The position numbers and the translations under genes were made by a program. 64,000 bases of DNA from Aeromicrobium piscarium (GTDB taxonomy: Bacteria > Actinomycetota > Actinomycetes > Propionibacteriales > Nocardioidaceae). The DNA lies in assembly GCF_007421815.1 (NCBI RefSeq), contig NZ_VLNT01000006.1:119108-183107 (forward strand), written 5' to 3'. The stretch's first letter is position 1. Every line of letters begins with the position of its first letter. Shown piece by piece: positions 43,530 through 52,918 of the stretch. The notes below the pieces were generated by a model. The model was not told where the DNA came from, did no database searches, and saw only the letters and a list, made by a program, of their open reading frames with translations.

Positions 43530-44027
43530 TCAGATCTCCGTCTGTGCTTCGAAGGGCAGGTGCTCGAGCAGGTGCAAGGTGGGGACGTCGAGGGAGCGTC
43601 GGGCCCGTGAGGTCCAGTCCAGTTTGAGGAACTCGCGGACGAGGTGCGGCTCGGTGAGGATGATGACCTCGTCGGCCGAGGTCTCGGTCACCAGCTCCTT
43701 GAGCGCGTCGATCGGGTCGAGATCGGTGAGGCGGGCGGTCACCTGCTGACCGCGATCGCGCAACAGCCGGGCGCTTTCGTCGAGCTCGGCCTCGCCGGCC
43801 TGGTGGAGCTCCTGATCGACGACCGCCATGGTGTCCGGTTCGGTCATGGGCACGAACTGCCCACCGCCGAGGGCGCTCATCGACGATCCGAGGACCGCCG
43901 CCGAGCTCTCGATGGGCAGCAGGAGATGGTAGGTGACATCGTCATCGACGCCCTCCTGCAACGACACGATCTGGTTCGCGTCCAGTTCGATCAGCTGACG
44001 TTCGATCAACAGCACCACGTTGTACAT
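43530..44027 (-). CDS. USP-like small protein, unknown function
   Basis: A 165-residue soluble protein. LLIERQLIELDANQ and the C-terminal half SADEVIILTEPHLVREFLKLDW with LDVPTLHLLEH look like the alpha/beta fold of universal-stress or nucleotide-binding proteins. No Walker-like ATP loop. It lies just upstream of msrB and 9 bp after the BenE-like gene. Function unknown. Confidence 0.7.
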   Translation of the reverse strand: MYNVVLLIERQLIELDANQIVSLQEGVDDDVTYHLLLPIESSAAVLGSSMSALGGGQFVPMTEPDTMAVVDQELHQAGEAELDESARLLRDRGQQVTARLTDLDPIDALKELVTETSADEVIILTEPHLVREFLKLDWTSRARRSLDVPTLHLLEHLPFEAQTEI

Positions 44028-44036
44028 ATACCGATC

Positions 44037-45326
44037 CTAGTCGGCGGTGGTCGTCTCCTGCTCACGAGCGCGGAAGTCCTTCGGTTCGAGCAGCAGCGAT
44101 GCGAGGACACCGCCGATCAGCGACCAGAACGGTGCCGAGATGTTGAAGACCGTGACGCCGCTCATGGCGATGATGAGGGCGAAGAAGGCTCCCAGCTGGA
44201 AACGGCTCGCCGAGAAGCTCTCCTGGAAGGACCGCACCAGCACGCCGATCATCGCCAGACCGGCGACGGTGGCGATCAGCTCCGGCGGCAGGATCGTCAC
44301 TAGCGCGACCGTGACCCCGGCGAAGACTCCGAACAGCCCGAAGAGGGTGCCGTTGACGACCGATGCGGCATACCGGCCCGAACGGTCCTCGCCTGCCTGG
44401 TCCGAGGAGCAGATCGCCGTCATCGGACCGGCGATATTGGCATTGTGGCCGCCGAAGACCGGGGCGAGCAGACCACCGATGCCGCTGATGATGGTCATGA
44501 CGTTGAAAGGCGGCCGGTACTTCTCTGCCATGAGGACACCCATCGATTGGGCGTTCTCCGCCCCGATGACCAGCAGTGCGAGGGGGATCGCCACAGCGAA
44601 CATCGCACCGAGATCGAAGGACGGCGCGATCAGCACAGGTGTGCTGAACCCGACTCCGCCGTCGAGGGTGCCGAAGTCGCCGAGAATGGCCGTGACGAGC
44701 ACCCCGAGGGCCAGCGCGCCGACCACGCCAGGGACCCTCGGAAGGAAGCGGCTCAGGAGCACATAGCCGACGAGCGTCGCCCCAACGATGACCGGGGCGG
44801 CGACGGCGGAGTTGACGATGTCGATACCGAAGCGGATCAGCGCGCCGGCGATCATCGCCATGACGATGGGGAACGGTATCCAGTCGGCGAGTTTGCGCAC
44901 CAGTCCGCTCATGCCGATCACCAAAACGATCAGACCGGCCATGAGGAATGCGCCGACCATCTCCGCGAAGCTGAAGTTCGGCAGAGCGGCCACGACCAGA
45001 GCGGCTCCCGGAATGGAGAAGGCCCCGCTGATGGGCTGCTGGTAGTAGAGGGCCAGCACGATGGAGATCAAGCCGCCGAAGAAGTAGATCCCGAAGATCC
45101 ACGAGGCGATGACCTCGGCGCTGAGACCGGCGGCGCCGGCTCCACTGATGACGATCAGTGCGGGACCGGTGCAGCCGAAAATGGTCGCGATGACACCGGC
45201 GCCGATGGTCGCCGGGTTGAGATGGCGAGGAAGATCGCGCAGACCTGAGCGGAAGCCGGGGCCTCGCTCCATGAGTGGTCGTTTCGTCTCCGGCTCGACC
45301 CTGCCGGTGTTATCGGATGTGACCAT
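44037..45326 (-). CDS. BenE-family aromatic-acid/benzoate transporter
   Basis: A 429-residue permease with about twelve helices. GAGVIATIFGCTGPALIV, YYQQPISGAFSIPGAALV, PPFNVMTIISGIGGLLAPVFGGHNANIAGPMTAIC and LLRSF-like C-terminal blocks match BenE. BenE proteins import benzoate or related carboxylates. It directly follows the acyl-CoA ligase on the same strand, so it may bring in the acid that the ligase activates. Confidence 0.88.
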   Translation of the reverse strand: MVTSDNTGRVEPETKRPLMERGPGFRSGLRDLPRHLNPATIGAGVIATIFGCTGPALIVISGAGAAGLSAEVIASWIFGIYFFGGLISIVLALYYQQPISGAFSIPGAALVVAALPNFSFAEMVGAFLMAGLIVLVIGMSGLVRKLADWIPFPIVMAMIAGALIRFGIDIVNSAVAAPVIVGATLVGYVLLSRFLPRVPGVVGALALGVLVTAILGDFGTLDGGVGFSTPVLIAPSFDLGAMFAVAIPLALLVIGAENAQSMGVLMAEKYRPPFNVMTIISGIGGLLAPVFGGHNANIAGPMTAICSSDQAGEDRSGRYAASVVNGTLFGLFGVFAGVTVALVTILPPELIATVAGLAMIGVLVRSFQESFSASRFQLGAFFALIIAMSGVTVFNISAPFWSLIGGVLASLLLEPKDFRAREQETTTAD

Positions 45327-45370
45327 GATGACTCATCTCTGTTGACGGCCTCTTCGCTGGGCCGCGGTGC

Positions 45371-46954
45371 TCAGGTGACGATCGGAGTAGGGGAGTTCGC
45401 GCCGGTCGTGACTGCTAGGTCGTAGTCGCCTGCGACGAGCTTGCGGCGCAAGATCTTGCCCACGGGGGACTTGGGGATCGCCTCGATGACGATGACCCGC
45501 TTGGGACGTTTGTAGGGGGAGAGCGGCGCCTCGCTGCGGACCCAGTCCTTGACGCGAGCGGCCACGGTCTCGGGATCCTCGTCGTCTCGTGTGGGAACGA
45601 TGAAGGCGGTGACGGCCTGGCCCCACTTCTCGTCGGGGAGGCCGACGACGCTGACCTCCGCTATATCGTGATGGCGGACGAGGATGTCCTCGACCTCGAC
45701 CGGATGCACGTTCTCGCCACCGGTGACGATCATGTCGTCGACCCGGCCCTCGACCCACAGATCGCCGTCCTCGTCGACCCGGCCGATATCGCCGGTGTGG
45801 TACCAGCCGTGGCGGATCGACTTCGCATCCGCATCGGGCCGCTGCCAATAGCCGGAGAAGGCCTCATCGGAGCGCAGGTCCACAGCGATCTCACCCTCCT
45901 GGCCTGGCGGCAGCGGCTCGTGGACCTCGTCGCTGGACGGGTCGACGACACGCCAGCGGCCGAACACACCGGGACGGCCCGCCGCGCCGGGCTTGGCCGC
46001 GGCGTCGTCGGCGATGGAGAAGGTGTAGACCTCGCTGGAGCCGTAGTGGTTGATGAACACCTCGGGCTGGAGGTGTTCGACCAGCTGCTCACACAGCGAG
46101 GAGGTCATCGGCGCGCCGGCGAAGGCCAGCTTGCGGACACTGCGTGCCACCCGTTCCATGTCGCCGCCGCCGTTGACCACGGACCAGAAGGCCGTGGGCA
46201 CCAGGTAGAGCGCCGTGACCGACTCCTGTTCGATGAGGTCGACCGCCTCATCGGGGCGGAACACGGGCTGGACGACGAAGGTCCCACCGACCACGATCAT
46301 CGACAGCAGCGAGCGCAGGCCCATCGTGTGATACATCGGCATGGCACCGAGCGTGATCTCGCCGGGCTGGTAGCGGGCTTGGACGACGTGGGCGACGGAG
46401 GCGGCATGCTCATTGCGCTGCGTGCGGGGGACTCCCTTGGGGCGCCCGGTGGTTCCGCTGGTGTAGAGCATCACGCTGAGGTCATCGGGTCCGACCTCGA
46501 TGCCGGGGGTGGAGATGTCCGCCGCGAGGACGGACTCCTCGAAGTCGAGGCTGTCCGCGATAGCGCAGTCGCCGACGGTGAGCACTGCCGGTCGGGCCGG
46601 GGCCTCGGCGAGCACGGTGCGGGCCAGGTCCGCCGCCACCGTGTCCACGACAACCACCTTGGGGGCGGAGTCGGTCAGACAGTGCGTCAGCTCGGGCACG
46701 CCGAGCCGGATGTTGTAGGGCGTCGACATGACGCCGAGCTTCTGGAGGGCCAGATGGGTCGACGCCATCTCCTCGCTGTTGGAGAGGAAGAGCCCCACGC
46801 GATCGCCGCGTTCCACGCCGAGCGAGGTCATCAGATTCGCGATCTGATTGGTGCGCCGGTCGAGCTCGCGGTAGGTCAGTCGTCGCTGGCCGGCGAAGGC
46901 GAGCCGTTCGGGGAAACGTTCGGCCGTCCAGGTGAGGGTCGTGCCGAGGTCCAT
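45371..46954 (-). CDS. Acyl/aryl-CoA ligase (ANL superfamily)
   Basis: A 527-residue AMP-forming ligase. The P-loop is VMLYTSGTTGRPKGVPRTQ, followed by NHYGSSEVYTFS, HTGDIGRVDEDGDLWVEGRVDDMIVTGGENVHP, and the catalytic lysine in LSPYKRPKRVIVIEAIPKSPVGKILRR (A10 PVGKI). It resembles benzoate/phenolic-acid and long-chain acyl ligases. The ATG at 46954 has GGAAGGA upstream, 2 bp after the CoxS-CoxG stop. It would activate an acid imported by the BenE-like permease. Confidence 0.9.
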   Translation of the reverse strand: MDLGTTLTWTAERFPERLAFAGQRRLTYRELDRRTNQIANLMTSLGVERGDRVGLFLSNSEEMASTHLALQKLGVMSTPYNIRLGVPELTHCLTDSAPKVVVVDTVAADLARTVLAEAPARPAVLTVGDCAIADSLDFEESVLAADISTPGIEVGPDDLSVMLYTSGTTGRPKGVPRTQRNEHAASVAHVVQARYQPGEITLGAMPMYHTMGLRSLLSMIVVGGTFVVQPVFRPDEAVDLIEQESVTALYLVPTAFWSVVNGGGDMERVARSVRKLAFAGAPMTSSLCEQLVEHLQPEVFINHYGSSEVYTFSIADDAAAKPGAAGRPGVFGRWRVVDPSSDEVHEPLPPGQEGEIAVDLRSDEAFSGYWQRPDADAKSIRHGWYHTGDIGRVDEDGDLWVEGRVDDMIVTGGENVHPVEVEDILVRHHDIAEVSVVGLPDEKWGQAVTAFIVPTRDDEDPETVAARVKDWVRSEAPLSPYKRPKRVIVIEAIPKSPVGKILRRKLVAGDYDLAVTTGANSPTPIVT

Positions 46955-46956
46955 GA

Positions 46957-48216
46957 TCAGTTCCTTCCGAGGACCCGGCGCACCAGCGTCCGGATCCGGG
47001 ATCGAATGAGGGTGAACATGATAGAGAGCGCGCTCGCGGGGGCTGCCTCGACGGGAGCCTCGCCCCGGGAGGCGGCGTCGATATTGGCCGCGAACTGGTG
47101 GAACATGTCGGTGCTGACGTCGTTGACGAGGCCGCGCCCGAATTGGGCGATGCGGCCGACCATGTGCAGTTCGGCGACCGCGCGCAGATCGGTGCCGCCG
47201 TCCTGTCGAGACTCCGCCGTGAGGTCGACGACCGCGGCCACGTCTCCGGACGAGGCATCGGCGGCCTGGCCGATGACCTTCACCCGGTGGGTGGTCTCGT
47301 CGCGTTCGAGGATCTTGACATCGCCGAGGAAGGCGAGGCGGACGGGTCCCAGGCTGACGCGCATGCGGCCCTTGTACTGGTCGTCGCCGAAGTCGGCGAT
47401 GATCTCGGCTCCCGGCAGGCAGGTCGCCAAGGTCTGAGTGTCCTCGATGATCTCCCAGATGTCCTCGATGGGAGCCTCGGCGCGGGTGTCGACGACCACG
47501 ATCGCCGTCGGCTCGCCGGAGGGGACGGCGATATCGGCCGGACCCGAGGCCGCCTCGGCCGATTCCAGCTGGGCGGGCGTCCCGGGGCCGCCGAGGCTCG
47601 CGCGGGGGAGCCTCGGTTCTGCGTGGCCGCAGTTCCTGGGGCCCGGTACGCCCTGCGGGAACTGCTCGGCGATATCGGCGACCGCGTCGACGATATTGCG
47701 GTAACCGGTGCAGCGGCACAGGACGCCGGAGAGCCGGTCGGGGAGTTCTTCGGCCTCGATACCGGGTTCGGAGCTGAGCAGGTCGTAGGCACTCATGATC
47801 TGACCCGGTGTGCAGAAGCCGCATTGCAACGCGTGATGCGCGCCGAAGGACTCCTGGAGCGGATGGAGGTCGGTGGGTGTTCCCATGCCCTCGACCGTCA
47901 CGATCTCCGAGCCGTCCACCTGGCAGGCGAGGATCAGGCAGGAGCGTGCGGCGTCGCCGTCGACCATGACCGTGCACAGGCCGCAGACGCCGTGTTCGCA
48001 ACCGAGGTGCGTGCCGGTGAGGCCGAGGTGATCGCGCAGGGCGTCCGCGAGCGTCACCCGGGGAGCGACGTGCACGGTGGCGGGGCGGCCGTTGACGGTG
48101 AGGTCGACCCGGAGCAGCTCATCGGCCTCGCACCGGGTGACCGCGGAGTCCGTGTTCTCGCGACGTCGTCGCCAGCGGTCGACGACCGAGGCCGCCTGAT
48201 CGAGGAGCAGGGTCAT
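46957..48216 (-). CDS. Fused Mo-hydroxylase iron-sulfur subunit (CoxS) and CoxG
   Basis: A 419-residue fusion. Residues ~37-190 are a CoxS-type protein with a plant-type [2Fe-2S] site (C73, C78, C81, C93) and a second cluster (C132, C135, C167, C169, including CGFCTPG and CRCTGY). Residues ~228-400 are a SRPBCC CoxG domain (IEDIWEIIEDTQTLATCLPGAEI and QFGRGLVNDVS). The C-terminal SALSIMFTLIRSRIRT could associate with membrane. The two functions are usually encoded by separate genes. It overlaps coxM by 4 bp. Confidence 0.9.
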   Translation of the reverse strand: MTLLLDQAASVVDRWRRRRENTDSAVTRCEADELLRVDLTVNGRPATVHVAPRVTLADALRDHLGLTGTHLGCEHGVCGLCTVMVDGDAARSCLILACQVDGSEIVTVEGMGTPTDLHPLQESFGAHHALQCGFCTPGQIMSAYDLLSSEPGIEAEELPDRLSGVLCRCTGYRNIVDAVADIAEQFPQGVPGPRNCGHAEPRLPRASLGGPGTPAQLESAEAASGPADIAVPSGEPTAIVVVDTRAEAPIEDIWEIIEDTQTLATCLPGAEIIADFGDDQYKGRMRVSLGPVRLAFLGDVKILERDETTHRVKVIGQAADASSGDVAAVVDLTAESRQDGGTDLRAVAELHMVGRIAQFGRGLVNDVSTDMFHQFAANIDAASRGEAPVEAAPASALSIMFTLIRSRIRTLVRRVLGRN

Positions 48217-49103
48217 CGGGATTGTCCTTTCCTGCTGTCGTGGAAGGCGGCGACGAGTTCGCGACCGCCCAGAACGCGGACCAGGCGGCGGCGGTATCCC
48301 GCGCTCGCGTGCTTGTCGCCGCCGGTGGTGACGAGTTCGCGGGCCGCGTCGGTGAGAGCTTCGGCGACCGCTGCGGGGGCGTCGGTATCGGCCGCCGTGC
48401 GCAGCGGCTCGGCGACGATCTCGGTGACATCGAGGAGCCGGGGACGATCCGCCACCCCGAAGGCGCCGAGCAGCGCCTGCACGACCCGGTCACCCTCGGT
48501 CTGCACCATCGTGGTGATGCCGACGAGGGCGAAGTCGCCGTGTCGGCGGGCCATCTCGGCGAAGCCGAAACCCTGACCGCGGCGGGCGCGGGGCACGGTG
48601 ACATATCGCAGCACCTCGCCGGGTTCCAGGGCGGTGGTCATGGCGCCCCGGAAGAACTCCTCGGCGAGTAGTTCACGGTCACCCGCCGGTCCGGTGATCC
48701 CGAGCCGGGCGCCCAGCGTCAGCATCACGGCCGGCAGTTCCGAGGCGGGATCGGCGTGGGCGAGTGAGCCGCACACCGTGCCCCGGCTGCGGATCTCCCG
48801 GTGCCCGATCCAGGGCAAGGCCCGCGACAGCAGGGGCACCCGCAGATCCGGGTGACGCTCCACGGCGCGCTGACGTACGGCTGTCCCGATCCGCACCACG
48901 TGCGCGCCGACCTCGATGTGCTGCCAGGCCGGGACCCGTGAGATGTCCACGAGGGTCGGCGGGCGGCCGAGGCGCATCGCCAGCACCGGCATCAGCGACT
49001 GACCGCCGGCGATGATCTTGGCCTCTCCCTGTGCGAGTGAGAGTTCGGCGAGCACCCCCTCCGGCGAGGTCGGGCGCACATAGGAGAACGGGGCAGCCTT
49101 CAT
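48213..49103 (-). CDS. Mo-hydroxylase FAD subunit (CoxM/XdhB-like)
   Basis: A 296-residue flavoprotein. AKIIAGGQSLMPVLAMRLGRP and the FAD-binding GSLAHADPASELPAVMLTLGA are clear. The C-terminal domain RLVRVLGGRELVAAF closes the fold. ATG 49103 follows the upstream stop by 1 bp. It passes electrons from the Mo site via the [2Fe-2S] subunit to FAD. Confidence 0.93.
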   Translation of the reverse strand: MKAAPFSYVRPTSPEGVLAELSLAQGEAKIIAGGQSLMPVLAMRLGRPPTLVDISRVPAWQHIEVGAHVVRIGTAVRQRAVERHPDLRVPLLSRALPWIGHREIRSRGTVCGSLAHADPASELPAVMLTLGARLGITGPAGDRELLAEEFFRGAMTTALEPGEVLRYVTVPRARRGQGFGFAEMARRHGDFALVGITTMVQTEGDRVVQALLGAFGVADRPRLLDVTEIVAEPLRTAADTDAPAAVAEALTDAARELVTTGGDKHASAGYRRRLVRVLGGRELVAAFHDSRKGQSR

Positions 49104-49104
49104 G

Positions 49105-49884
49105 TCAGCGGTCCCGGAACTGCGGCGTGCGCTTCTCGCCGAAGGCGGCCACGCCCTCGGCGAAGTCCTCGGTGGCGCGCAGCATCGAGTACGCCTTGCG
49201 CTCCAGCTCCACACCGGTCGCGAGGGGTCCGTCCACGCCGCGGTCGAGGACTTCCTTGGCGGTGCGCAAGGACACTGCCGAGAAGCCCAGCAGCGTGGTC
49301 ACGACGCGCTCGACCTCGCTCTCCAGGCCGTCGCGGTCCTCCGGTGCGCTGGCGACGAGGCCCCAGTCGAGGGCCTGCTGTGCGCTGAAGCGTTCACCGG
49401 TGAGGATGTGGTACTTGGCACGCGAGAGGCCGATGAGGCGCGAGAGCCGCTGGGTGCCTCCCGAGCCGGGCATCATGCCCAGCTTCATCTCCGGCAGCGC
49501 GAAGGAGGAGCGCTGCGTGGCCAGGCGGATATCGGTGGAGAGGACGAGCTCGAGGCCGACGCCGAAGCAGTAGCCGTCGATCGCGGCGATCACGGGCTTC
49601 TGCGAGCGCGAGGCCGCGGTGATGTCGTGGCCGAGATCGGTGAGGTCGAAGGGAGCGACCTCCATGAACCCGGCGATATCGCCGCCGGAGGTGAAGTGCT
49701 CGCCGTCGCCGCGGATCACGACGACGCGGATGTCCCGGTCGGCGTCGATCTCGGCGAAACGCTCGGCCATCAGGGCGCGCATCTCCATCGTCACGACATT
49801 GAGACGTCCGTGGTCGAGCGTCAGATTCGCCACGCGGCCGTCGTGGCTGCGCTCGAGGTGGATGGTGCCTCCGGTGGTGGGCAT
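49105..49884 (-). CDS. Enoyl-CoA hydratase/isomerase
   Basis: A 259-residue crotonase. The oxyanion-hole loop is GEHFTSGGDIAGF; both catalytic glutamates of hydratases are in place, in FGVGLELVLSTD and LPEMKLGMMPGSGGTQRL. The ATG at 49884 has GAAAGGA upstream. It lies inside the Mo-hydroxylase operon, between the large and FAD subunits, which is unusual and argues for a shared pathway on a CoA thioester. Confidence 0.92.
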   Translation of the reverse strand: MPTTGGTIHLERSHDGRVANLTLDHGRLNVVTMEMRALMAERFAEIDADRDIRVVVIRGDGEHFTSGGDIAGFMEVAPFDLTDLGHDITAASRSQKPVIAAIDGYCFGVGLELVLSTDIRLATQRSSFALPEMKLGMMPGSGGTQRLSRLIGLSRAKYHILTGERFSAQQALDWGLVASAPEDRDGLESEVERVVTTLLGFSAVSLRTAKEVLDRGVDGPLATGVELERKAYSMLRATEDFAEGVAAFGEKRTPQFRDR

Positions 49885-49894
49885 GCTGGTCCTT

Positions 49895-52288
49895 TCAGTC
49901 GTTGAGATGCAGCAGATCGTGCAGGACATTCGGGTGGAGCGGCAGCGAGTCGATCCGGACCCCCCGGTGGCGCAAGGCATCCTCGACCGCATTGGCGAAG
50001 GCGACCGGGAAGCTCATGCTCGCGCCCTCGCCGGCTCCCTTCGCGCCGAGCCGCGTCATCGGTGACGGGGTCTCGATATGCGCCATCGTGAGGGGGAACA
50101 TCGACTCCGCCGTAGTGGGGATCAGGTAGTCCATGAAGGTCGACACCGGCTGGCCGGCATCGGAGTAGGCCATCTCCTCGTACATGGCGCCTCCCAAGGC
50201 CTGGACCATCGCCCCGTGCACCTGCCCCTCGAACAGAGTCGGGTTCAGGATCGTCCCCGGATCGTGGATGCTGACCACATCGTCGATCGTGATGTCGAGG
50301 GTCTCCGGGTCGATCCGCACGCTGACGAGATCGGCGACGAAGCCGTAGCAGAGTGACGAGTTGACCTGATCGGTGCGCGAGGGCGCCTTCGCCTGCGGGG
50401 GAGTGAAGGCGACATTGACCTCGAGGGTGGCGTCCTCGCCCTCGGGCAGTCGGCCCGGATCCCAGTGGACCAGGCCGGCCGCGTGCTTGAACAGCACGGA
50501 CGTGTCGGGGTCGTCGATGATCCGTACGCTGCCCTGGTGCAGCTCCAGGCGGTCGGGGCTGGTGTCCAGGATCACCGCGGCGGCCTTCGTGATGCGGTGG
50601 GCGATCTCGCGTGAGGCATCGACCAGTGCCGAGGTGAGCAGCGGGGAGAAACGTGAGGAGTAGCTGCCTGAGGTGATCGTCCAGGCGGTGGTCGCGGTGT
50701 CCATCTCGACGGTGGGGATCACCTGCTCCTCGGGCAGGTCGAGCTCTTTGGCGACCACCTGCCGCGCGACGGTGGCATGTCCCTGACCTTGCGGCACGGT
50801 GCCGAGGGTGATCCCGACGATGCCCTGGGGGTCGACGCTGAGGTGCACGTGCTCGGTGGAGCCGGACTTGCCGCGTCCCGGGGGACGGTTCTCGGCCGGG
50901 GTCGCGAGGCCGACATAGCCGATATTCGTCCCCGAGGGCTCGACGATGAGGGCGACACCGGTCCCGACGAGTTCGCCGCGGGCTCGCGCCTCCTCCTGCC
51001 GTGCGAGCAGGGCGCGGTAGTCCGAGCGCTCCTCGAGCAGTTCGACCACACGCTGGTAGTCGCCGGAGTCGTAGATACCGCCGGTCGGGGTGGCGTAGGG
51101 GAAGGCATCGGCATGGATCAGATTGCGCTTGCGGAAGTCGAGCCGGTCCATGCCCACGGTGCGCGCGGCGGTGTCCATGATCCGCTCCAGCGCGAAGTAG
51201 AGCTGCTGCCCGCCGAATCCCCGGTTCAGTCCCGTGGGGCACTTGTTGGTGACGACGGCACGTGAACGGAGCCGCACGGTGTCGATGCGATAGGCGCCGG
51301 TCATGTTGCCGAAGCACCGGTAGAGCGTGGCGGGCTCCGGGGGCCGTAGGTAGGCGCCGACATTCTCGACGAAGTCGATGTCGATGGCCTCGATGATCCC
51401 GTCCGCGTCGACAGCGGCGCGCACCTTCATGTGCCGGTCGGATCCCGACGAGCTGGACAGCAGATGCTCCGAGCGATCCTCGGACCACCGCACGGGGCGC
51501 TGGGCGTGGCGCGATGCGAGTGCCATGAGCGCCATATAGGGATAGATCCCGGACTTGATGCCGAACGAGCCTCCGTTGTCGGCCGGGACATGCAGTCGCA
51601 GTTGGGAGGTGGTGACGCCGAGCGCGCCGCACAGGACCGGGACCATCGAGAACGGTCCGTGGAAGTTGGACCAGATCTCGACCTCGGGTCGCTCGGGATC
51701 GTCGATCCAGGTGGCCACGACGCTGTAGCACTCCATCGGAGTTGAGGAGTATCGAGGGAAGTAGTAGTCGCCCTCCACGATGTGCTCGGCAGCGGCGAAG
51801 GCATCGTCCACCTCGCCGAAGACGAAGGTGCGGTCGCTGGCCACATTGGTGCCGGCGTTCTCGTGCAGCAGGGGTGCCTCCGCGGTGGTGGCCTCGAGCG
51901 CATCGACCACGACCGGGTGGAGGTCGTAGGCGATGTCCACCAGCTCCGCGGCGTCCTCGGCGGTGTAGCGATCGGTGGCGACCACGACGGCCACCGGTTC
52001 TCCGACATAGCGCACCTTGTCGGTGCCGGTGGGGTAGTAGTCCATCGGTGCGCGCAGCGAGAGCGGGAAGGGACTCAAGGCCGCGGCGACCTCCTCAGGC
52101 CCGATCACGGCCGCGACACCCGGGTGTGCGCGTGCGCGGGTGAGATCGATCGAGGTGATGGAGGCGTGAGCATGGGGACTGCGGACCACGGTGGCCACCA
52201 GCGTGCCCGGCAAGGGGTCCAGATCGTCGAGGAACGCGCCCTTGCCGGTGACGAGTCGAGCGTCCTCGAGCCTGGCCATCGTGCTCAC
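49895..52288 (-). CDS. Mo-hydroxylase large subunit (xanthine-oxidase family)
   Basis: A 797-residue molybdenum subunit. The protein begins TMARLEDARLVTGKGAFLDDL and ends in a typical FANAVEDALRHRGV block with GEGASMSFPVAF and the catalytic-site Glu in GAKGAGEGAS. The active-site loop near residue 355 reads GLNRGFGGQQ, not the AYRCSFR of true CO dehydrogenase form I nor AYRGAGR of form II; it resembles GALRGYG of aldehyde/xanthine oxidases. The GTG at 52288 has GGAGGAGAACCC before it. It hydroxylates or oxidises an organic substrate, not CO. Confidence 0.9.
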   Translation of the reverse strand: MSTMARLEDARLVTGKGAFLDDLDPLPGTLVATVVRSPHAHASITSIDLTRARAHPGVAAVIGPEEVAAALSPFPLSLRAPMDYYPTGTDKVRYVGEPVAVVVATDRYTAEDAAELVDIAYDLHPVVVDALEATTAEAPLLHENAGTNVASDRTFVFGEVDDAFAAAEHIVEGDYYFPRYSSTPMECYSVVATWIDDPERPEVEIWSNFHGPFSMVPVLCGALGVTTSQLRLHVPADNGGSFGIKSGIYPYMALMALASRHAQRPVRWSEDRSEHLLSSSSGSDRHMKVRAAVDADGIIEAIDIDFVENVGAYLRPPEPATLYRCFGNMTGAYRIDTVRLRSRAVVTNKCPTGLNRGFGGQQLYFALERIMDTAARTVGMDRLDFRKRNLIHADAFPYATPTGGIYDSGDYQRVVELLEERSDYRALLARQEEARARGELVGTGVALIVEPSGTNIGYVGLATPAENRPPGRGKSGSTEHVHLSVDPQGIVGITLGTVPQGQGHATVARQVVAKELDLPEEQVIPTVEMDTATTAWTITSGSYSSRFSPLLTSALVDASREIAHRITKAAAVILDTSPDRLELHQGSVRIIDDPDTSVLFKHAAGLVHWDPGRLPEGEDATLEVNVAFTPPQAKAPSRTDQVNSSLCYGFVADLVSVRIDPETLDITIDDVVSIHDPGTILNPTLFEGQVHGAMVQALGGAMYEEMAYSDAGQPVSTFMDYLIPTTAESMFPLTMAHIETPSPMTRLGAKGAGEGASMSFPVAFANAVEDALRHRGVRIDSLPLHPNVLHDLLHLND

Positions 52289-52322
52289 GGGTTCTCCTCC
52301 ATCGCCTGACAGTTCTAAATGG

Positions 52323-52341
52323 ACCGTATGAAACATACGGT
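52323..52341. promoter_or_regulatory. Probable PadR operator dyad
   Basis: ACCGTATG AAA CATACGGT is a perfect 8-bp-arm dyad in the 84-bp gap between the divergent padR-like and Mo-hydroxylase genes. A further half site ACCGTAGG begins at 52351. The position suits repression of both units. Confidence 0.7.
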
Positions 52342-52372
52342 GTGAACAAGACCGTAGGCCTAGGATGGTGCT

Positions 52373-52918
52373 ATGTCAAGGGAACGCCTCAGCGCCACCT
52401 CGTTCGTGGTCCTGGGCTTGATCGCATTGCGCGGGCCGTCCACGTCCTACGACCTGAAGCGGGCCACTGGCCACTCGATCGGCTACTTCTGGCCGTTTCC
52501 GCACGCTCAGCTGTATTCCGAGCCACGTCGCCTGGTCGAGGCGGGCCTGCTGACCGTGCAGGAGGAATCCGACGGCCGGCGACGACGCACGTTCTCGATC
52601 ACCGCCGAGGGTCGTGAGGCCCTGGCGGAGTGGCTCGATCAGCCCATCACGGAGCCCATGCAGATCCGCGACGTCGCCGAGCTCAAGCTGTTCTTCAGCG
52701 AGCTGCTGAGCCTCGATACCAAGCGCCGGATGGCACGCGACCAGATCCGCCAGCACACGGAGCGGTTGGAGGAGTACCACGCGATCCAGAAGCGGTTCGG
52801 CGGACGTGAGGACATCGCTCCTCGCCTCGTGCCGCTGGACCTCGGTATCGCGATGACCGAGGCGGCCCTGGCGTTCTGGGACGAGTTCGCGGAACGGCTG
52901 GACGCGGAGCGGGATTGA
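52373..52918 (+). CDS. PadR-family transcriptional regulator
   Basis: A 181-residue winged-helix regulator. LIALRGPSTSYDLKRATGHS and FPHAQLYSEPRRLVEAGLLT with RRTFSITAEGREALAEWL are the PadR DNA-binding domain. The C-terminal ~90 residues are the helical dimerisation (Vir_act_alpha_C-like) region. PadR proteins commonly sense phenolic acids. It faces the Mo-hydroxylase operon across a perfect dyad, so it probably represses that operon. Confidence 0.92.
   Translation: MSRERLSATSFVVLGLIALRGPSTSYDLKRATGHSIGYFWPFPHAQLYSEPRRLVEAGLLTVQEESDGRRRRTFSITAEGREALAEWLDQPITEPMQIRDVAELKLFFSELLSLDTKRRMARDQIRQHTERLEEYHAIQKRFGGREDIAPRLVPLDLGIAMTEAALAFWDEFAERLDAERD

What the first reader, a model, noticed from the sequence alone, without database searches (positions are those of the whole stretch)
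43530..52918. PadR-controlled cluster combining a Mo-hydroxylase, CoA ligase, enoyl-CoA hydratase and BenE transporter
Six co-directional, nearly abutting genes face a PadR regulator. The hydratase lies inside the hydroxylase subunit genes, which is unusual. A ligase and hydratase could shorten a phenolic-acid side chain as in hydroxycinnamate pathways, with the Mo enzyme oxidising the resulting aldehyde or a ring. The large-subunit loop GLNRGFGG excludes true CO dehydrogenase. Parts are seen; pathway is inference. No ring-cleavage gene is in the window.
Basis: partly seen in the sequence, partly recalled or inferred. Interest (0 to 1): 0.78.

Follow-up and report, generated by a model that had tools for sequence, protein, structure and literature searches.

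The report
Actinobacterial furoate-degradation operon, rearranged
A block of seven genes in an actinobacterium looks like its version of the known bacterial pathway that turns furoic acid, a product of plant-biomass toxins, into a common metabolite, with the genes in another order and one accessory domain attached to a different subunit than in the well-studied Proteobacteria.

Summary
The genes are real. The 43530-44027 gene in the given range is not part of it: in 21 of 28 sister-genome loci it lies within about 50 bp of the ribD-like gene, with no cluster between.

The set does not look like a phenolic-acid pathway. It matches hmfABCDE, the furoate operon (furoyl-CoA, Mo-hydroxylation at C5, lactone opening, 2-oxoglutarate). 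Large subunit, hydratase and, less stringently, ligase group with Hmf-type loci. All 79 hydratases recovered at such loci share FGVG...LPE. This pathway needs no ring-cleavage dioxygenase.

It is a distinct actinobacterial version: order A-E-B-C-D here, D-A-E-B-C in most relatives; a padR gene in 21 of 23 named loci; CoxG on the small subunit (on the large subunit in Proteobacteria, a separate gene in Bacillota). The CoxG tree rejects a single origin (post hoc), so CoxG was probably recruited twice. Furoate itself is inferred from orthology (about 45% identity); other heteroaryl acids are not excluded.

The parts
52373..52918 (+). PadR-family regulator with C-terminal Vir_act_alpha_C domain, divergent from the operon
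   Evidence: PF03551 E 3.1e-10, PF10400 E 1.8e-9; homologue present in 21 of 23 named S-CoxG loci, divergent in 20 and on the operon strand in L102; in the two without it, L104 and L112, the large subunit lies 249 and 636 bases from the start of the held stretch
52323..52341 (.). perfect palindrome ACCGTATG-TTT-CATACGGT, putative PadR operator
   Evidence: only zero-mismatch site in the window; of 26 rows not used to derive the pattern, 5 have at most 1 mismatch, 3 have 2, 6 have 3 and 12 have 4 or 5
49895..52288 (-). Mo-hydroxylase large subunit (HmfA-like, no CoxG domain); likely GTG start at 52288
   Evidence: PF01315, PF02738, PF20256; 44-48% identity to L of the six plasmid loci against 28-39% to other large subunits of this genome; trees; loop GLNRGFGG
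49105..49884 (-). crotonase-fold protein, HmfE-like
   Evidence: PF00378 E 4.8e-50; groups with hydratases of Hmf-type plasmid loci 100/100; FGVG...LPE signature in 79 of 79
48213..49103 (-). FAD subunit (HmfB-like by position)
   Evidence: PF00941 E 8.5e-40; 36-44% to FAD subunits of five Hmf-type plasmid loci, 30% to the archaeal one; not discriminating, since paralogues in this genome reach 38%
46957..48216 (-). [2Fe-2S] subunit (HmfC-like by position) fused to a C-terminal CoxG domain and a basic tail
   Evidence: PF00111, PF01799, PF06240; the fusion is seen in all 23 named actinobacterial loci of this clade and in the six same-family relatives. Identity of the [2Fe-2S] part does not discriminate (Hmf-type 47-59%, own paralogues up to 56%)
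45371..46954 (-). acyl-CoA ligase (HmfD-like)
   Evidence: PF00501 E 1.1e-74; 45-47% to the operon ligases of L005, L006, L007 and L009; ligase tree
44037..45326 (-). BenE-family transporter, probable furoate uptake
   Evidence: PF03594 E 1e-85, NCBIfam benE 217.2 over cut-off 203.4; benE seen in 23 of 80 related named loci; benE reported downstream of hmfABCDE in P. pseudoalcaligenes (PMC6678421, passages)

Best explanation
The cluster is an actinobacterial furoate catabolic operon, orthologous in its key enzymes to hmfABCDE but rebuilt. Proposed mechanism: BenE imports 2-furoate; the ligase makes 2-furoyl-CoA; the L/M/S Mo-hydroxylase hydroxylates C5; electrons pass from Mo over [2Fe-2S] and FAD on to quinone, with the CoxG domain tethering the complex to the membrane or carrying quinone; the tautomerised product, an enol lactone, is opened and the thioester cleaved with the help of the crotonase-fold protein, giving 2-oxoglutarate. 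PadR represses from the palindrome in front of the operon until furoate or furoyl-CoA binds. Shown here: gene content, domain fusion, grouping of L, ECH and ligase with Hmf-type loci, recurrence of the layout, presence of the block between ribD and usp in 2 of 49 genus genomes. Inferred: substrate, chemistry, electron acceptor, repression, effector, transporter specificity.
For: The five enzyme genes match those of the plasmid loci L005, L006, L007 and L009; L008 lacks the ligase and L010 the ECH. Trees: L, ECH, ligase. L005 (Cupriavidus pinatubonensis) against seven gammaproteobacterial loci gives HmfA 60-64, B 57-66, C 67-75, D 60-62, E 71-75%, near the published 64/59/77/61/80% between C. 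basilensis HMF14 and P. pseudoalcaligenes (PMC6678421, passages), so L005 is a fair stand-in for true Hmf. ECH signature in 79 of 79 recovered hmf-type ECHs, in none of the 22 other own ECHs looked at and none of 13 family decoys. benE follows hmfABCDE in P. pseudoalcaligenes. An XdhC gene is in the genome.
Against: About 45% identity to the proteobacterial set leaves room for another substrate. PadR, gene order and CoxG placement differ from the hmf operons whose description I saw. Identities of M and S do not discriminate from paralogues in this genome, and I built no tree for them. No NCBIfam Mo-hydroxylase model passes its cut-off, and the best models for M and S are those of glyceraldehyde dehydrogenase (188.9 of 350 and 194.2 of 290). 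The ligase tree had few decoys. No UbiD homologue in the genome, so the known FDCA-to-furoate step is absent. The nearest relative outside the genus, Janibacter (L098), has 4 mismatches to the operator pattern. The S. acidocaldarius study found CoxG an anchor rather than an electron carrier (PMC11962113, passages). Nothing was assayed.
Confidence: 0.78

Rival explanations
1. Same chemistry on another five-membered heteroaryl acid (thiophene-2- or pyrrole-2-carboxylate): ligase, C5 hydroxylation as CoA ester, ring opening.
For: The actinobacterial L and ligase form their own clades, and L is about 45% identical to the proteobacterial ones; the transporter family does not fix the substrate.
Against: The gene set and the crotonase signature are shared with Hmf-type loci; the characterised system with this gene set that I found described is furoate (passages).
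Confidence: 0.14
2. One reading: CoA-dependent side-chain shortening of hydroxycinnamates, the Mo enzyme oxidising the aldehyde, PadR sensing phenolic acids.
For: PadR family and BenE are often tied to phenolic and benzoic acids (recalled).
Against: The hydratase belongs to the Hmf-type clade; no hydroxycinnamoyl-CoA hydratase/lyase model among its 25 best NCBIfam hits of 73 (the other 48 not shown); the five-gene set recurs in 71 of 80 loci.
Confidence: 0.03
3. A benzoyl- or hydroxybenzoyl-CoA type ring-modifying Mo enzyme (like 4-hydroxybenzoyl-CoA reductase).
For: Same enzyme superfamily; ligase and BenE would fit; 4-HBCR models match all three subunits.
Against: Scores far below curated cut-offs (alpha 372 against 994.55, beta 76.9 against 404.55, gamma 144.6 against 257.8); no benzoyl-CoA pathway enzyme named among the cluster genes scanned.
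Confidence: 0.03

Closest known systems
hmfABCDE furoate operon (Cupriavidus basilensis HMF14; Pseudomonas pseudoalcaligenes CECT 5344 with benE)
   Same: Five matching enzyme genes; benE-type transporter in the latter; ring opened without a dioxygenase
   Different: Order A-E-B-C-D (D-A-E-B-C in most of the clade); CoxG on the small subunit and of another CoxG lineage; PadR instead of LysR/AraC. Compared through stand-ins (L005, L009, L157 and others), as the HMF14 sequences themselves were not held
Bacillota relatives (Geobacillus kaustophilus pHTA426, L006; ten named loci such as Fictibacillus, Brevibacillus, Bacillus)
   Same: L, M, S, ligase, ECH, often a transporter
   Different: CoxG a separate gene (between L and M in 8 of 10 named loci), usually PucR-like regulator, XdhC and MobA upstream, ligase and ECH last
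Aerobic Mo-Cu CO dehydrogenase CoxLMS with CoxG
   Same: Superfamily and accessory CoxG; Glu770 (numbered from ATG 52336) aligns with the Glu of the GxGE stretch of CoxL
   Different: No Cys in the active-site loop; scores below CODH model cut-offs

Membership tests
hmf (furoyl-CoA) catabolic system | L, M, S Mo-hydroxylase + acyl-CoA ligase + crotonase protein in one operon-like run | tested here: met
hmf (furoyl-CoA) catabolic system | large subunit and crotonase group with those of Hmf-type loci, apart from paralogues | tested here: met
   L 13 rows 100/99 against 8 own paralogues; ECH 12 rows 100/100 against 21 own ECHs and 13 decoys
hmf (furoyl-CoA) catabolic system | ligase groups with Hmf-type ligases | tested here: met
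   86 rows, SH-aLRT 99, only four ligases outside, and the 86 include second ligases of some loci: a weak test
hmf (furoyl-CoA) catabolic system | M and S subunits closer to Hmf than to paralogues | tested here: inconclusive
   identities overlap with own paralogues; no tree built
hmf (furoyl-CoA) catabolic system | crotonase signature FGVG...LPE (defined here) | tested here: met
   79 of 79 recovered ECHs, 10 of 89 loci gave none; no FGVG in 22 own ECHs, in 6 of which my pattern matched nothing
hmf (furoyl-CoA) catabolic system | gene order A-B-C-D-E, called highly conserved in a review | tested here: not met
   A-E-B-C-D here; review passage. An arrangement, not an enzyme-defining feature; hence filed as a variant
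hmf (furoyl-CoA) catabolic system | CoxG domain on HmfA (as in proteobacterial loci L005 and L009) | tested here: not met
   CoxG is on the small subunit; free in Bacillota too, so not defining
hmf (furoyl-CoA) catabolic system | activity on furoate/furoyl-CoA, growth on furoate | not testable with these tools
   needs assays
Aerobic CO dehydrogenase | Cys in the active-site loop (recalled motif); scores over CODH models | tested here: not met
   loop GLNRGFGG; 469.8 against 950 and 419.3 against 991.15
4-hydroxybenzoyl-CoA reductase | scores over TIGR03193/03194/03195 cut-offs | tested here: not met
   144.6/257.8, 372/994.55, 76.9/404.55
Hydroxycinnamoyl-CoA hydratase/lyase | match to a hydratase/lyase model | tested here: inconclusive
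   none among the 25 best of 73 NCBIfam hits; the other 48 were not shown

The most novel reading that the evidence does not exclude
The complex is a furoyl-CoA:menaquinone oxidoreductase in which a CoxG domain, captured independently of the proteobacterial one, was fused to the [2Fe-2S] subunit. The same tethering or quinone-carrying part was thus wired convergently to different subunits of one enzyme, and the crotonase protein alone does both lactone opening and thioester cleavage.
Probability: 0.35. Interest if true: 0.6.

Novelty: new variant of a known kind. Interest (0 to 1): 0.45.

Why it matters
Furfural and furoate arise in biomass hydrolysates. By record title the actinobacterial version occurs in Nocardioides, Amycolatopsis, Streptomyces, Pseudonocardia and others, and it offers Gram-positive parts for a pathway described mostly in Proteobacteria in the papers I saw. 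The repeated attachment of CoxG to different subunits is a natural experiment on how Mo hydroxylases hand electrons to the respiratory chain. The invariant crotonase signature makes the unassigned lactone-opening step (PMC6678421, passages) directly testable.

Tried and rejected
Considered and rejected: CO dehydrogenase, 4-hydroxybenzoyl-CoA reductase, hydroxycinnamate side-chain pathway (see membership test). GC content does not mark the block as foreign: 67.9% against 69.9% and 67.7% in 10 kb flanks. The C-terminal tail of the fusion is basic with a hydrophobic stretch, but its hydrophobic moment is not exceptional (best tail window ranks 11 of 402), so I claim no amphipathic anchor. My clustering of ORFs in actinobacterial loci is confused by overlapping high-GC frames; I take from it only that the core recurs in all 27 loci given (two duplicate genomes left out) and padR in 25. 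It does not prove that no other hydrolase is conserved. The operator pattern was read off the window and L111, so those two are no tests; 12 of the other 26 rows have 4 or 5 mismatches. A count of loci with all five genes used a crude text match; I recounted it by reading and got the same 71. Searches of the held open-access library (listings only, apart from the papers cited) showed me no description of an actinobacterial hmf operon or of an S-CoxG fusion. The papers most likely to hold one (Koopman 2010, Wierckx 2011, Donoso 2021) are not held, so this is no proof of absence. Structure prediction was not used.

Full report
What is there. The window lies on contig C43 of a 3.76 Mb genome. The genus is Aeromicrobium by inference: genome G007 of the same genus has a contig of 3,629,239 bases, the size printed for A. 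erythreum NRRL B-3381 (PMC4841140, abstract in the search listing). The family includes Nocardioides: contig lengths of G130 and G149 equal those of N. currus and N. baculatus. From the promoter side the minus-strand genes are L (52288-49895), ECH (49884-49105), M (49103-48213), S-CoxG (48216-46957), ligase (46954-45371) and BenE (45326-44037); padR (52373-52918) faces them. L/ECH, ECH/M, M/S and S/ligase are 10, 1, -4 and 2 bases apart; ligase/BenE 44.

Boundaries. In the same genus, 43 of 49 genomes have the 43530-44027 protein. Of the 30 fetched loci, two (window and G023) carry benE and the ligase beside it. Of the other 28, 21 have the ribD-like gene within about 50 bp upstream, one (L207) about 0.9 kb off, and six show none in the fetched 1.5 kb. 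The simplest reading is that the block from padR to benE was inserted between ribD and usp. The sequence before usp in two sister genomes (CTAGGATTG...ATG) resembles that at the benE stop in the window (CTAGGATCGG...ATG), which places the right edge near the benE stop. 2 of 49 genus genomes have the full-length S-CoxG protein; 7 of 197 family genomes have the ECH at 71% identity or more, the next best being about 40%; 11 of 394 class genomes have an S-CoxG match at E 1e-60 or better, some of them partial or with a stop inside. The best named large subunit is that of Janibacter indicus (85%), against 68-69% in Nocardioides (records very near the window may be left out there). This patchiness suggests horizontal movement, which I did not test.

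What it is. tblastn of L in plasmids gave, among the 30 best rows, Cupriavidus, Paraburkholderia, Rhizobium, Geobacillus, Priestia and haloarchaeal loci at 43-48%. L005 reads LysR, then L, M, S, ligase, ECH, MFS and XdhC, the order of hmfA-E. The genome has 10 matches to the large-subunit domain PF02738; the other large subunits are 28-39% identical to L. L groups with the six plasmid loci (13 rows, 100/99) apart from 8 own paralogues. The ECH groups with five plasmid ones (12 rows, 100/100) apart from 21 other own ECHs and 13 family decoys. In the ligase tree 86 of 90 rows form one group (SH-aLRT 99), with four distant ligases outside, three of them 5 kb or more from L; the 86 include second ligases of some loci, so this test is weak. 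M and S identities overlap with own paralogues (M up to 38%, S up to 56%), so they say little. As a check on the stand-in, L005 against seven gammaproteobacterial loci gives 60-64, 57-66, 67-75, 60-62 and 71-75% for A to E; the published values for C. basilensis against P. pseudoalcaligenes are 64/59/77/61/80% (PMC6678421, passages). The pathway, with HmfD ligase, HmfABC dehydrogenase and HmfE, is described in PMC6604932 (passages) and tabulated in PMC12064950 (passages). [quoted passage not shown]

The survey. All five genes were found in 71 of 80. Of the nine others, L127, L139, L146, L163 and L164 are cut short by a contig end near the cluster, and L138, L145, L153 and L160 lack ECH or more; in L129 and L134, counted among the 71, some of the genes lie in other places or on the other strand. 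Three layouts appear. Actinomycetota, 23 loci: L-ECH-M-S=CoxG with the ligase before L or after CoxG, padR in 21 (divergent in 20, on the same strand in L102). Forty loci, 39 of them proteobacterial by title and one (L171) titled Terriglobia: L=CoxG-M-S, followed by ligase and ECH where the contig reaches, often with AraC or LysR and benE or MFS. Bacillota, ten loci: free CoxG, in eight of them between L and M, usually with PucR, XdhC and MobA. Seventeen of 80 loci fall outside the two fused classes, the ten Bacillota included. A review says that the hmfABCDE order is highly conserved; the actinobacterial loci break that order.

CoxG. The large subunits of S=CoxG loci are one side of one branch (28 rows, SH-aLRT 100); those of L=CoxG loci would be too but for L149, where no CoxG was detected. 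In the CoxG-domain tree (49 rows) the actinobacterial fused domains lie with three of the four stand-alone CoxG proteins of this genome that entered the tree and two of L103; the fourth (L065) falls on the other side, with the L-fused and Bacillota domains. Holding the 40 hmf CoxG domains together is rejected, p-AU 5.5e-7, and 9.6e-4 with three divergent rows left out. The group was named after seeing the tree and few unrelated CoxG proteins were available, so these p-values are optimistic. CoxG is reported as a membrane anchor for a glycerol-3-phosphate dehydrogenase (PMC11962113, passages) and as a menaquinone-binding carrier in CO dehydrogenase (PMC13240472, passages citing Kropp 2025, which was not held). 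Which applies here is open.

HmfE. ECH was recovered from 79 of 89 loci searched, and all 79 carry FGVG before the first conserved Glu and LPE for the second. These two Glu align with Glu residues of the solved crotonase-fold proteins 5zai and 9qwv; their catalytic role is recalled. The 13 family decoys have GGG there; of 22 own ECHs none has FGVG, one has AGVG, and in six my pattern matched nothing. PMC6678421 states that no gene is assigned to lactone hydrolysis. ECH is the only hydrolase-like gene that I recognised in the conserved block, so a dual role is a fair hypothesis, not shown.

Regulation. The palindrome ACCGTATG-TTT-CATACGGT lies between padR and L and is the only exact site in the window; at up to three mismatches the window holds 2 sites, 0.56 expected, and 10 of 100 shuffles reach 2. 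In one search (28 rows, two genomes present twice), apart from the window and L111, from which the pattern was read, five rows have one mismatch (L059 sister genome, L103, L113, L117, L118), three have two (L061 and L105 are one genome; L116), six have three and twelve have four or five, Janibacter (L098) among the last.

Limits. No function was measured. The genome has one XdhC gene but no UbiD match, so HMF-derived FDCA is unlikely to feed the pathway by the known route.

Noticed in passing
window 43530-44027: 165-aa protein without Pfam or NCBIfam match at E 0.001, found in 43 of 49 genus genomes; all 30 fetched loci have msrB beside it and 22 of 30 show a ribD-like gene in the fetched stretch. 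Function unknown.
   Followed up: partly
own genome, C34 and C1, C7, C12, C17 (L065-L072): The genome has 10 matches to the Mo-hydroxylase large-subunit domain PF02738, five of them on contig C34, two of those next to each other; only one XdhC match.
   Followed up: partly
L072 (own genome C17:1-20000): Another Mo hydroxylase with M, S and CoxG about 6.5 kb from another BenE gene.
   Followed up: no
L134, L145, L160: Related large subunits with loop letters NRGY-C (GPNRGYGC, SPNRGYTC, GPNRGYAC) and incomplete or rearranged sets; possibly sister enzymes for another substrate.
   Followed up: no
L006, Geobacillus kaustophilus pHTA426: Hmf-type operon on a 48 kb plasmid together with a UbiD-family gene, a molybdate permease and moaA: a plasmid-borne Mo-enzyme package.
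   Followed up: no
L008 and L010: Priestia and Halorussus loci carry a hotdog-domain or PaaI-family thioesterase; no ECH was found in the Halorussus stretch, a possible replacement for the HmfE-like step.
   Followed up: no
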